From the NCBI RefSeq assembly GCF_008642315.1, contig NZ_CP029192.1, positions 4,464,001-4,528,000 of the forward strand: a DNA stretch of 64,000 nt. The letters are read 5' to 3'. Positions 2,562 to 47,402 of this stretch are shown here, one piece after another. This stretch comes from Streptomyces venezuelae. GTDB taxonomy: Bacteria; Actinomycetota; Actinomycetes; Streptomycetales; Streptomycetaceae. The notes under the pieces were generated by a model that saw only the letters and a program-made list of their open reading frames with translations, was not told the origin of the DNA and ran no database searches. Position 1 is the stretch's first letter. Every line of letters starts with the position of its first letter. The position numbers and the translations under genes are program-made.

Positions 2562-3257
2562 CTAACGGCGCAGTGCCTCCGGTTTCCCGGCCTCCACGGG
2601 CTGGGTCGCGTCCAGATGTGCCCAGGCGATCAGCCGGTGACTGTGGCCCCACTCTGGTTCACAGGTCGTAAGGGTGAGGTAACGGCCCGGGCCGTCATAG
2701 CCGGATTTGCGCGGCACGGGATCAATGACGTCGATGTCGCCGGGGAGCGTCTTGTAGGGCTTCTTGTCGATGCGGTACGTGAACCAGGTCGCGCCGTCGG
2801 TGAGGACCACCGCGTCGCCGGGGCGCAGTTTCGGGAAGTCCTTGAACGGGTCGCCGTAGGTGCGGCGGTGGCCTGCCACGGCGAAGTTGCCCTTCTGGCC
2901 GAGGCGGGCGGTGGAGGCGTAGTGGCCGAGGCCCTTCTTGAGGACGTCGGTGCCGGTGCCGTGGAGCACGGGCTTGTTCCACGTGAAACCAAAGCGCGGG
3001 ATGTACATGACCGCGAAGGCCTTGCCGTCTTTGTAGGGGGCGGGCTCGTCCGGCGAGTCCGTGGAGCTCTCGGCGGACGTTCCCGAGGCGACCGCTCCTT
3101 GCGCCCACCGGTCCTGCAACTGGTCGATCTCGCTGTCCATGGCGTTGTCGGCCTTCACGCCGGTCCAGAACAGGACGTAGGCGACGAAGAGCACGATCAG
3201 CGTGCCGACGGTGATGCACAGTTCGCTGAACGTCCTGACCAGCACGCGCACGGACAC
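2562..3257 (-). CDS. class E sortase
   Basis: 231-aa membrane-anchored cysteine transpeptidase. GTG 3257 follows a strong purine-rich ribosome site (GGGGGGA). Residues 1-9 are cytoplasmic, about 11-32 form the membrane anchor, and residues 60-231 carry the sortase fold. Catalytic His130 in AVAGHRRTYG, Cys199 in TLTTC and Arg208 in SHRLIAW are all present, so the enzyme looks active. It is the minimal version of the family in this cluster, without the long N-terminal tail of the 427-aa paralogue. It is the first sortase of the minus-strand run sortase, small membrane protein, pabA, sortase, sortase. A near-perfect parS sequence (one mismatch) lies inside the gene at 2976-2989. Confidence 0.92.
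   Translation of the reverse strand: MSVRVLVRTFSELCITVGTLIVLFVAYVLFWTGVKADNAMDSEIDQLQDRWAQGAVASGTSAESSTDSPDEPAPYKDGKAFAVMYIPRFGFTWNKPVLHGTGTDVLKKGLGHYASTARLGQKGNFAVAGHRRTYGDPFKDFPKLRPGDAVVLTDGATWFTYRIDKKPYKTLPGDIDVIDPVPRKSGYDGPGRYLTLTTCEPEWGHSHRLIAWAHLDATQPVEAGKPEALRR
2976..2989. other. degenerate parS site inside sortase gene
   Basis: GTTCCACGTGAAAC differs by one base from the parS palindrome GTTTCACGTGAAAC. It falls in codons for FTWNKP of the sortase. One-mismatch sites can still bind ParB, more weakly; binding here is inferred. Confidence 0.5.
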
Positions 3258-32990: not shown

Positions 32991-34105
32991 GCGAACGACG
33001 CAGAGGACTGGGGCGAGGCCTCGGTGCCTTGATCCCTGCAGCCCCGACGGAGAAGCAGGCCCCGCAGAGCGTGGGCGGGGGATCGACCTCCCCCTCGGCT
33101 GTCCCGGTTCTGACCGCCGAGCGAGGCGTGGCTGCCGCGAAGGTGACCTCGCTTCCGCAGAGTCCTGTTTCACATGAAACGGTGGAGCCGCCTCAGCAGA
33201 CCGCGGAGCCGGTCGAGAACCAGACCGTGGCGGGTGCGCACTTCGCCGAGCTGCCGCTCGACGTCATCACGCCGAACCCGCAGCAGCCTCGTGTGGTGTT
33301 CGACGAGGACGCCCTCGCCGAGCTGGTGACCTCCATCAAGGAGGTCGGTCTTCTCCAGCCGGTCGTGGTGCGGCAGCTGGGTCCCGCGCGCTACGAGCTC
33401 ATCATGGGCGAGCGGCGCTGGCGGGCGTGCCGTGAGGCGGGCCTCGAGCGCATCCCCGCCATCGTGCGGGCCACGGAGGACGAGAAGCTCCTCCTGGACG
33501 CCCTTCTCGAGAACCTGCACCGTGCCCAGCTGAACCCGCTGGAAGAGGCTGCGGCCTACGACCAGTTGTTGAAGGACTTCAACTGCACGCACGACCAGCT
33601 GGCGGACCGCATCGGCCGGTCCCGTCCGCAGGTCTCCAACACGCTGCGACTGCTGAAGCTCTCGCCGGCCGTGCAGCGCAGGGTCGCCGCCGGAGTTCTC
33701 TCCGCGGGCCACGCGCGGGCGCTGCTCTCCGTCGAGGACTCGGAGGAGCAGGATCGGCTGGCCCATCGGATCGTGGCCGAGGGTCTCTCGGTGCGTGCTG
33801 TCGAGGAGATCGTGACCCTCATGGGCTCCCGGCCCCAGAGCGCCCCGAAGGCCAAGGGGCCGCGTGCCGGCACCCGTGTCTCGCCGGCTCTGAGCACGCT
33901 CGCCACGCGCCTCTCCGACCGGTTCGAGACCCGCGTCAGGGTGGATCTGGGGCAGAAGAAGGGGAAGATCGTCGTTGACTTCGCCTCTCTGGAGGACCTG
34001 GAGCGCATCCTCAGCACGCTGGCGCCGGGCGAGGGGCCGGTCCTGAAGAACGGCCTGGCCGACGACACCTCGGAGGACGACGGTCCCGAGGACGGCAGCG
34101 CCTGA
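32987..34105 (+). CDS. parB: chromosome partitioning protein ParB
   Basis: 372-aa parS-binding CTPase that spreads on DNA around the origin. GTG 32987 overlaps the parA stop by four bases. N-terminus [14 protein letters not shown] is the ParA-stimulating peptide. The CTPase/ParB domain has NPQQPR and the motifs GERRWRA and [14 protein letters not shown]; the HTH region ([27 protein letters not shown]) reads parS; the C-terminal dimer domain follows from about 300. Residues 20-75 are a linker that includes a one-mismatch parS at DNA level (33167-33180). A hairpin terminator follows. Confidence 0.99.
33167..33180. other. degenerate parS in parB
   Basis: GTTTCACATGAAAC, one substitution from parS in the central CG, inside the parB coding sequence. 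Confidence 0.55.
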
Positions 34106-45325: not shown

Positions 45326-46768
45326 GTGCCGAACGCCAACGAAGACAATCCCAACGCCCTGAGCCAGGTGCAGCGCCGCGCGGTCAGCGAACTGCTGCGT
45401 GTGTCCCCTGTCGCGGACGACCTCGCCCGCCGTTTCCATGAGGCCGGGTTCTCCCTCGCCCTGGTCGGCGGCTCGGTCAGGGACGCCCTGCTGGGCCGGC
45501 TCGGCAATGACCTGGACTTCACGACGGACGCCCGCCCCGAGGACGTACTGAAGATCGTCCGGCCGTGGGCCGACGCGGTCTGGGAGGTCGGGATCGCCTT
45601 CGGCACGGTCGGCAGCCAGAAGGACGGCTACCAGATCGAGGTGACCACCTACAGGTCGGAGGCGTACGACAGGACCTCGCGCAAGCCCGAGGTGTCCTAC
45701 GGCGACTCGATCGAGGAAGACCTCGTGCGCCGTGACTTCACCGTGAACGCGATGGCCGTGGCGCTGCCCGAAAAGGAGTTCGTGGACCCCCACGGCGGGC
45801 TCGATGACCTCGCGGACCGTGTTCTGCGTACCCCCGGCACCCCCGAGGACTCCTTCTCCGACGACCCGCTGCGCATGCTGCGGGCCGCGCGCTTCGCCGC
45901 GCAGCTGGACTTCGAGGTGGCTCCGGACGTCGTCGCCGCGATGACGGCGATGGCCGAGCGCATCGACATCGTCTCCGCGGAGCGCGTACGGGACGAATTG
46001 AACAAGCTGCTCCTTTCCGCTCACCCGCGCAAGGGCCTCGCTCTCCTCGTCGACACGGGCCTCGCCGAGCGGGTCCTCCCCGAGCTCCCCGCCCTGCGTC
46101 TGGAGCGGGACGAGCACCACCGTCACAAGGACGTGTACGACCACTCGCTGATCGTCCTCGAACAGGCGATGGCTCTGGAGACGGACGGCCCCGATCTGAC
46201 GCTGCGGCTCGCGGCGCTGCTGCACGACATCGGCAAGCCGAAGACCCGGCGCTTCGAGGGCGACGGCCGAGTCTCCTTCCACCACCACGAGGTGGTCGGC
46301 GCCAAGATGGTCAAGAAGCGCATGACGGCGCTCAAGTACTCCAACGAGCTCGTGAAGGACGTCTCGCGCCTGGTCGAGCTCCACCTGCGCTTCCACGGCT
46401 ACGGCACGGGAGAGTGGACGGACTCGGCCGTACGCCGTTACGTACGCGACGCGGGCCCTCTCCTGGAGCGCCTGCACAAGCTGACCCGATCCGACTGCAC
46501 CACCCGCAACAAGCGCAAGGCGAATGCCCTGTCGCAGGCGTACGACGGCTTGGAGGAGCGCATCGCCCGCCTCCAGGAGCAGGAAGAGCTGGACTCGATC
46601 CGCCCCGACCTGGACGGCAACGACATCATGAAGGTCCTTGACGTGGGACCGGGCCCGGTCATCGGCCAGGCCTACAAGTTCCTGCTGGAGCTGCGCCTCG
46701 AGAACGGCCCGATGGAGCGAGACGCGGCGGTCGCGGCGCTCAAGGAGTGGTGGGCGGCGCAGAACTGA
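45326..46768 (+). CDS. pcnA: CCA tRNA nucleotidyltransferase
   Basis: 480-aa enzyme adding or repairing the CCA end of tRNAs. Start is GTG 45326 (MPNANEDNPNALSQ); no clear ribosome site precedes it, so leaderless translation is possible. The nucleotidyltransferase head has GGSVRDALLGRLGNDLDFTTDARPED with the metal-binding acids, the neck RMLRAARFAAQLDF, and the HD-domain AALLHDIGKPKTRR near 285. It is the bacterial class II type with an HD domain. The family includes both CCA-adding enzyme and poly(A) polymerase; the gene symbol follows common actinobacterial use. Divergent from the DUF6049 gene. Confidence 0.93.
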   Translation: MPNANEDNPNALSQVQRRAVSELLRVSPVADDLARRFHEAGFSLALVGGSVRDALLGRLGNDLDFTTDARPEDVLKIVRPWADAVWEVGIAFGTVGSQKDGYQIEVTTYRSEAYDRTSRKPEVSYGDSIEEDLVRRDFTVNAMAVALPEKEFVDPHGGLDDLADRVLRTPGTPEDSFSDDPLRMLRAARFAAQLDFEVAPDVVAAMTAMAERIDIVSAERVRDELNKLLLSAHPRKGLALLVDTGLAERVLPELPALRLERDEHHRHKDVYDHSLIVLEQAMALETDGPDLTLRLAALLHDIGKPKTRRFEGDGRVSFHHHEVVGAKMVKKRMTALKYSNELVKDVSRLVELHLRFHGYGTGEWTDSAVRRYVRDAGPLLERLHKLTRSDCTTRNKRKANALSQAYDGLEERIARLQEQEELDSIRPDLDGNDIMKVLDVGPGPVIGQAYKFLLELRLENGPMERDAAVAALKEWWAAQN

Positions 46769-46783
46769 GCTGAACCGGCGGGT

Positions 46784-46797
46784 GTTTCACGTGAAAC
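46784..46797. other. parS: parS site downstream of pcnA
   Basis: Perfect GTTTCACGTGAAAC, 15 bp after the pcnA stop; flanked by GGT and ACC, giving a larger palindrome. Confidence 0.95.
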
Positions 46798-46817
46798 ACC
46801 CGCTGGCTGGATACGCC

Positions 46818-46859
46818 GAGGGGCGTTGTTTCACGTGAAACCGTGAAACAACGCCCCTC
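46818..46859. terminator. terminator hairpin built on a parS site
   Basis: Perfect 18-bp stem: arm 46818-46835 reads GAGGGGCGTTGTTTCACG and arm 46842-46859 is its exact complement, with a TGAAAC loop. It sits between convergent pcnA and the SCO3897-like gene, so it can end both. The parS at 46828-46841 overlaps one arm and the loop. Confidence 0.9.
46828..46841. other. parS: parS site within the hairpin
   Basis: Perfect GTTTCACGTGAAAC, only 30 bp from the previous parS, the closest pair in the window. Confidence 0.95.
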
Positions 46860-46877
46860 GATGGTTCCTGCTGCCTG

Positions 46878-47402
46878 CTATGCCTTCTTCAGGCAGAGCA
46901 CGACGTTGTGGCCCTTGCCGGACTGGTAGTAGGCGATCTCAGACGTCTTGACCGTCTCGCACTTGGAGCTGTCGCTCGTACCGTCGAACTTCTCGACGAC
47001 CTCGAACTCGGAGTCACTCGAGGAGCAGTCGACCTCTTCCAGATCCGGCCGAATCTCGGTGCCCTTGTTGTGCATGCAGCTGCCGACGCTGGTGGACTCG
47101 GCATCGCTCTTGCCCATGTACCACTTGCCGACGGCTATGAGGATCGCGACCAGGATGAAGCCACCGATGCGCAGGAGCAGCTTCTTGGCGCCACCGCGAC
47201 GGGGGGCGGGCGGCGGGGGCACGGGGCCGCCCTGGTTGAAGGCCGGATACGGGGCCGTCGGGCCGCCCGGCTGGCCCTGCTGCGGCGGGTACGGGGCCGG
47301 GGGAGCCTGGCCGTACGGAGCGGCGCCGCCCTGGGGCTGGCCATAGGGGTTCTGGCCCTGGGGCGGGTACGGAGTCTGGCCCTGGGGCGGCGGAGTGGTC
47401 AC
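46878..47402 (-). CDS. LppU/SCO3897 family membrane protein
   Basis: 174-aa protein from GTG 47402. A Pro/Gln/Gly/Tyr-rich cytoplasmic tail (1-70) precedes one transmembrane helix at about 76-94 and a small extracellular domain with four cysteines: GSCMHNKG, EVDCSSSDSEFEV, SSKCETV and VVLCLKKA, which likely form two disulphides. The domain is the LppU/SCO3897 type shared with mycobacterial lipoproteins; function unknown. Stands alone between convergent pcnA and the MFS gene on the same strand. Confidence 0.85.
   Translation of the reverse strand: MTTPPPQGQTPYPPQGQNPYGQPQGGAAPYGQAPPAPYPPQQGQPGGPTAPYPAFNQGGPVPPPPAPRRGGAKKLLLRIGGFILVAILIAVGKWYMGKSDAESTSVGSCMHNKGTEIRPDLEEVDCSSSDSEFEVVEKFDGTSDSSKCETVKTSEIAYYQSGKGHNVVLCLKKA

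What the first reader, a model, noticed from the sequence alone, without database searches (positions are those of the whole stretch)
46784..46859. A parS site embedded in a perfect terminator hairpin, next to a second parS
Two perfect parS sites lie 30 bp apart between convergent pcnA and the SCO3897-like gene. The second overlaps a perfect 18-bp hairpin: half of the palindrome plus upstream bases forms one arm, and the other arm repeats CGTGAAAC so that the parS centre is rebuilt in the RNA stem. ParB clamps loading here would sit on a terminator for both genes. A dual-use element that reads as a centromere in DNA and a terminator in RNA is not something I have seen described.
Basis: partly seen in the sequence, partly recalled or inferred. 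Interest (0 to 1): 0.75.

Follow-up and report, generated by a model that had tools for sequence, protein, structure and literature searches.

The report
Centromere sites doubling as RNA hairpins
Between the converging ends of pcnA and its neighbour, Streptomyces carries chromosome-segregation (parS) sites whose flanks have evolved, with matching changes on both sides, into long hairpins of the kind that end or protect messenger RNAs, so one short DNA stretch appears to serve as both a centromere part and an mRNA end.

Summary
Both parS sites in the pcnA gap are hairpins: site 1 (46784) is the centre of a perfect 26-bp palindrome; site 2 (46828) lies in a 19-bp stem. The common form is a parS-centred palindrome.

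In 105 of 114 distinct Streptomyces pcnA gaps at least one parS-centred palindrome reaches 11 bp per half or more; 62 have two. The 14-bp core is nearly invariant (1.99 of 2 bits). The arms drift but stay paired: 184 double Watson-Crick replacements on a tree, about 30 in shuffles. Three other parS gaps show no such covariation.

I read these as bifunctional elements: ParB-loading site in DNA, U-poor 3'-end stem-loop in RNA. RNA 3' ends and ParB binding were not measured. Arm extension is locus-specific (pcnA gap, a beta-lactamase-like/GNAT gap, a phosphoribosyltransferase/fba gap), not a rule for convergent parS (p = 0.15 without pcnA sites).

The parts
45326..46768 (+). pcnA (poly(A) polymerase / tRNA nucleotidyltransferase family), left convergent gene; start approximate, stop exact
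   Evidence: ORF; Pfam PolyA_pol, PolyA_pol_RNAbd, HD
46778..46803 (.). Site 1 hairpin: perfect 26-bp palindrome with parS in the centre; works on both strands
46784..46797 (.). parS site 1, exact GTTTCACGTGAAAC
46817..46860 (.). Site 2 hairpin: 19-bp perfect stem 46817-46835 / 46842-46860 with 6-nt loop 46836-46841
46828..46841 (.). parS site 2, exact; its left part lies in the left arm and the rest is the loop
46834..46849 (+). Tandem duplication CGTGAAAC x2 that shifts parS off the hairpin centre; removing one copy restores a 36-bp parS-centred palindrome
   Evidence: shared with L052 S. atriruber only, of 130 loci
46878..47402 (-).
   Evidence: ORF

Best explanation
Each element is one sequence under two constraints. 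As double-stranded DNA the invariant 14-bp core is a ParB-loading parS site. When transcribed, the core plus its complementary flanks folds into a GC-based stem-loop (median palindrome half-length 18, so about 16 pairs round a 4-nt loop) that starts a median 12 nt after the pcnA stop and ends a median 16 nt from the stop of the opposing gene. It forms the 3' ends of the two convergent mRNAs, either by U-poor ('I-shaped') termination or by blocking 3' trimming after Rho-dependent termination. Because the palindromes are symmetric they can work on both strands. parS came first; substitutions in the flanks then lengthened the palindrome, so a centromere site was taken over as the 3'-end hairpin of the gap. 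Shown: sequence, positions, invariant core, paired covariation, controls. Inferred: ParB binding at these two sites, RNA 3' ends, bidirectional use, and the order of events.
For: Core 1.99 bits per column against 0.76 (proximal) and 1.17 (distal) in the arms, yet arms pair: positions +-9 to +-20 each exceed the largest of 1000 shuffles (170 distinct sites). On the pcnA tree 112 (proximal) and 72 (distal) double Watson-Crick replacements against 20.4 and 9.2 with shuffled arms. Other parS gaps (53874, 37213, 60357 orthologues; 89, 76, 19 distinct sites) never exceed their shuffle maximum. 98 of 109 parS-bearing pcnA gaps have parS-overlapping stems only, while 7 of 16 other convergent parS gaps have a separate stem only. 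Stem positions next to both stops (103 loci). 158 of 171 pcnA-gap sites fold at or below -23 kcal/mol in 56 nt, random positions 23%. Window and S. atriruber differ by a matched G-C/A-T pair inside the offset stem. Five of six earliest-branching Streptomyces loci have one parS with k 7-8.
Against: No transcript or ParB data. U content behind stems is only 1.7-1.9 of 8 (background 1.25); from memory, not from a call, mycobacterial RNA polymerase has been reported to need a U-tract. Not general: without pcnA-gap sites 9 of 45 convergent against 29 of 249 other-orientation sites have k>=11, p = 0.15. 102 and 59 pair losses were also counted on the tree. The wobble test, which could have told RNA- from DNA-level selection, was inconclusive (12 v 7 proximal, 6 v 9 distal, p = 0.30). 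Basal tree support is uneven (0.36-1.0).
Confidence: 0.68

Rival explanations
1. DNA-level selection: a longer palindrome serves ParB loading itself (extended contacts, cruciform extrusion, spacing of two ParB dimers), and RNA is irrelevant.
For: ParB binds palindromes; paired parS are frequent here and their spacings look periodic near 10-11 bp. The wobble test did not exclude it.
Against: Other parS sites, some only kilobases away, carry bare cores without covariation. Arm letters vary freely as long as they pair, unlike a protein contact. Bare-core convergent gaps often have a separate hairpin.
Confidence: 0.15
2. Only the hairpin matters in this gap; the parS-like centre is a leftover or convenient stem top without ParB function.
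For: 2 of 169 hairpins keep arms round a one-mismatch core (L064, L130).
Against: 167 of 169 keep the exact core (hairpins were chosen by a core within 2 mismatches, so this is conditional) and the core has 1.99 bits. ParB ChIP peaks in S. venezuelae fall on almost all parS (passages of PMC4852455; this gap was not looked up).
Confidence: 0.07
3. Mutational: template switching within the parS palindrome copies one flank onto the other and perfects arms without selection.
For: Fits matched changes and the 8-nt duplication in the window.
Against: It should act on every parS, but control gaps are bare in most loci: k>=11 in 7 of 93, 4 of 76 and 2 of 19 sites.
Confidence: 0.08

Closest known systems
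Chromosomal parS of the ParABS system (23 central sites in S. coelicolor, 16 in S. venezuelae; passages of PMC4852455)
   Same: Exact core; 13 copies within 126 kb in this genome.
   Different: Usual parS here have no arms; these have long complementary arms that covary.
U-poor structured 3' ends ('HS-U-lack', I-shaped terminators) of Streptomyces (PMC8269248, PMC8914203, PMC12207403; passages)
   Same: Stable stem, short loop, little U behind it, between convergent genes.
   Different: The top of the stem is a fixed 14-bp protein-binding site; no measured 3' end here.
DNA uptake sequence terminators of Neisseria (passages of PMC2397512)
   Same: A DNA-level signal reused as the stem of terminators; closest precedent for the logic.
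   Different: Two inverted uptake signals make one stem; a single parS is already a palindrome and seeds the stem alone; the DNA role is segregation, not uptake.

Membership tests
Chromosomal parS site | Exact 14-bp palindrome GTTTCACGTGAAAC | tested here: met
Chromosomal parS site | Clustered near the replication origin | tested here: met
   13 of 13 exact sites within 126 kb; that oriC lies inside this cluster was taken from the gene order by recall, not tested
Chromosomal parS site | Bound by ParB in the cell | not testable with these tools
   No ChIP data for this genome
Intrinsic terminator, canonical | Stem-loop followed by a U-tract | tested here: not met
   Strong stems but no match in the terminator scan at this place; 1.7-1.9 T of 8 over 169 relatives' hairpins
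U-poor (I-shaped) 3'-end hairpin | Very stable stem close behind a stop codon, few U | tested here: met
U-poor (I-shaped) 3'-end hairpin | Mapped RNA 3' end at the stem base | not testable with these tools
DNA uptake sequence terminator (works like) | Many genome-wide copies of an uptake signal, paired as inverted repeats | tested here: not met
   13 copies in one 126-kb cluster; likeness of logic only

The most novel reading that the evidence does not exclude
ParB occupancy and RNA 3'-end formation act on each other at these sites. RNA polymerase must transcribe through parS to build the hairpin, so ParB on the core could halt it before the second arm is made, moving 3' ends upstream when ParB is loaded (sporulation) and to the stem base when it is not; in turn the hairpins keep polymerases away from ParB-loading sites. 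The centromere would be insulated from transcription by its own sequence.
Probability: 0.2. Interest if true: 0.85.

Novelty: new variant of a known kind. Interest (0 to 1): 0.64.

Why it matters
It would be a centromere sequence turned into an RNA element in place, with two functions that can be separated: core changes test ParB, matched arm changes test RNA. It gives a natural system for asking how ParB and transcription share DNA near the origin, and it warns that deleting parS at such loci may also delete mRNA 3' ends. Of nine searches of the held open-access library, four paired parS with terminator, hairpin, stem-loop or convergent genes (9, 40, 41, 69); I saw no paper in their listings that describes parS inside a terminator-like hairpin. 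Subscription papers, including the original S. coelicolor parS paper and the 2007 parS survey, could not be read.

Tried and rejected
Rule 'parS in convergent gaps become hairpins': the first table looked decisive (k>=11 in 133 of 199 convergent, 23 of 160 codirectional, 1 of 8 divergent sites with both genes within 700 bp; 5 of 10, 5 of 78 and 0 of 3 with a farther gene; 8 of 48 genic; 1 of 18 at stretch ends), but the pcnA gap drives it. Without it: 9 of 45, 28 of 238, 1 of 11, p = 0.15. By gap family, half or more of the sites are extended in 7 of 15 convergent, 6 of 24 codirectional and 0 of 5 divergent families, and all 7 convergent ones are pcnA gaps (4) or gaps of the beta-lactamase-like gene (3). 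Rejected as a rule.

Wobble asymmetry as proof of RNA-level selection: inconclusive. Rfam: two chance-level matches below gathering score. Two stem-loop survey papers: term search found no parS.

Neighbour genes come from a home-made hexamer gene finder trained on these loci. It misses some genes (for example behind pcnA in the outgroup loci), so orientation classes are approximate; pcnA stops are exact. In one search one of the 16 'other' gaps (L150 19720) is by its sequence a pcnA gap cut off at the end of a fetched stretch.

Full report
What is there. The gap between the pcnA stop (46768) and the end of the convergent ORF (46878) is 109 bp and holds two exact parS 30 bp apart. Site 1 is the centre of a perfect 26-bp palindrome (46778-46803). 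Site 2 sits in a 19-bp stem (46817-46835 with 46842-46860); the left part of the parS core is in the left arm and the rest is the loop. The 106-nt segment 46770-46875 folds at -71.5 (+) and -69.3 (-) kcal/mol; 0 of 200 shuffles did as well on either strand. Of 13 exact parS in the genome a third with long arms (k = 18) lies at 4533946, also between convergent genes, beta-lactamase-like and GNAT. k is the half-length of the perfect parS-centred palindrome; 7 is the core alone.

How common. I took 80 named pcnA loci (the best 80 of 566 confirmed candidates, so near relatives of the query), 30 loci from a 60-genome sample of the order, one of them the own genome, and 20 more from that sample: the 13 non-Streptomyces genomes and 7 of the lower-scoring Streptomyces; 10 Streptomyces of the sample were not fetched. 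With the window these make 130 loci. Of 116 usable Streptomyces loci, 114 gaps are distinct: 97 have two exact parS, 3 have three, 14 have one; 105 have at least one parS-centred palindrome with k>=11, 62 have two, 9 none. In four of those nine (L056, L072, L076, L121) a site still pairs at 7-8 of 9 flank positions with the rest mostly wobble; the other five (L235, L236, L237, L240, L241) pair at 1-6 of 9. The 13 same-order non-Streptomyces loci have no parS within 260 nt of the pcnA stop. Genus membership of G-handle genomes is the tool's statement 'same genus'; the name Streptomyces comes from the named loci.

Two constraints. In two-site loci the core has 1.99 bits per column, the arms 0.76 (proximal) and 1.17 (distal). 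Yet the arms stay complementary: at +-9 to +-20 observed pairing exceeds the largest of 1000 shuffles (170 distinct sites), while in three other parS gaps no position does (89, 76 and 19 distinct sites). The first two control gaps come largely from the same loci, the third from other stretches. The pooled test mixes proximal and distal sites; separately, on a pcnA tree, they show 112 and 72 double Watson-Crick replacements against 20.4 and 9.2 with shuffled arms (40 shuffles per position), beside 102 and 59 pair losses and 13 and 4 regains. Event counts use one Fitch assignment on a tree with uneven support.

Hairpin at parS or beside it. Of 264 distinct convergent gaps of 20-300 bp, 125 hold parS. 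A perfect stem of 10 bp or more is in 86% of these and 52% of the 139 others; with shuffled gaps 0.0% and 1.4%. With stems of 9 bp or more, pcnA gaps with parS: 98 of 109 parS-overlapping only, 1 both, 1 separate only, 9 none; other gaps: 7 of 16 separate only, 3 parS-overlapping only, 2 both, 4 none (one of the three is a cut-off pcnA gap). So such gaps usually have a hairpin, and at pcnA it is parS. The parS at window 60357 shows the alternative: bare parS with a 15-bp hairpin beside it.

Not a general rule. Among 524 distinct parS, without pcnA-gap sites, 9 of 45 convergent, 28 of 238 codirectional and 1 of 11 divergent sites have k>=11 (p = 0.15, convergent against the rest). Two further gaps are strongly structured: the beta-lactamase-like gap (8 of 9 sites at or below -23 kcal/mol) and a codirectional phosphoribosyltransferase/fructose-bisphosphate aldolase gap (9 of 9); controls 38 of 93, 32 of 76, 8 of 19 and 23% of random positions.

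Origin. The tree puts loci with one bare parS (L235, L240, L236, L237, L241) near the base of the genus, with one exception there (L239, k = 19), then four loci with bare proximal and extended distal sites (L128, L217, L238, L218). This suggests parS first, hairpin later, but support at the first Streptomyces split is 0.38. The window's offset form is an 8-nt duplication shared with S. atriruber only (2 of 130 loci); the two differ by a matched G-C/A-T pair in the stem, so pairing is still kept.

Breadth. The pattern GGG-N2-4-parS-N2-4-CCC, which does not demand full complementarity, is in 12 of 12 same-genus and 1 of 284 other genomes of the phylum sample, although 184 of those 284 have exact parS. 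The exception, G342, has a k = 15 palindrome 5 nt behind a predicted stop codon.

Mechanism. First stems start a median 12 nt after the pcnA stop and last stems end a median 16 nt from the opposing stop (103 loci). U content behind 169 stems is 1.7-1.9 of 8 (coding background 1.25; 4 or more U in 10% and 5%, background 1%). Streptomyces Term-seq papers describe U-poor structured ends and leave open I-shaped terminators or protected Rho ends (passages of PMC8269248, PMC8914203, PMC12207403); the last gives median 3'-UTR lengths of 66-76 nt, longer than the first stem alone would give. I therefore claim 3'-end formation, not intrinsic termination. ParB loads at parS and spreads over 2.5-3 kb in S. 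venezuelae (passages of PMC12511625), not shown for this gap.

Verdict. A real, conserved, covarying composite of parS and a 3'-end hairpin; no description of it was seen in the searches made; its functions are inferred.

Noticed in passing
G223, G321, G363 (also G372, G141; family f28, same phylum); L259-L284: Over 100 exact parS per genome (114, 110, 135; 28 and 14 in the others), spread along the listed part of G223 rather than only near one place. Of 26 sites read from G223 and G363, 24 have k>=9, mostly the 18-bp form ATGTTTCACGTGAAACAT. Typical counts in the phylum sample are 0-6. Unexplained.
   Followed up: partly
Adjacent parS pairs in the fetched Streptomyces loci, e.g. window 46784/46828: Centre spacings pile up near 22, 33, 44, 56, 65 and 77 bp. 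183 distinct pairs: peak period about 11 bp, 0 of 2000 jittered sets as strong; 59 pairs of 47 bp or more: p = 0.0005; 67 pairs under 40 bp show no 11-bp peak. Not corrected for kinship.
   Followed up: partly
window 2976-2989 and 33167-33180: Two parS-like sites with one mismatch each (GTTCCACGTGAAAC, GTTTCACATGAAAC).
   Followed up: no
L200, L238, L168: Close parS pairs whose two copies pair with each other, so that each parS makes one arm of a longer stem.
   Followed up: no
L064 site 2, L130 site 2: One-mismatch parS cores inside intact long hairpins, natural test cases for losing ParB binding while keeping the hairpin.
   Followed up: no
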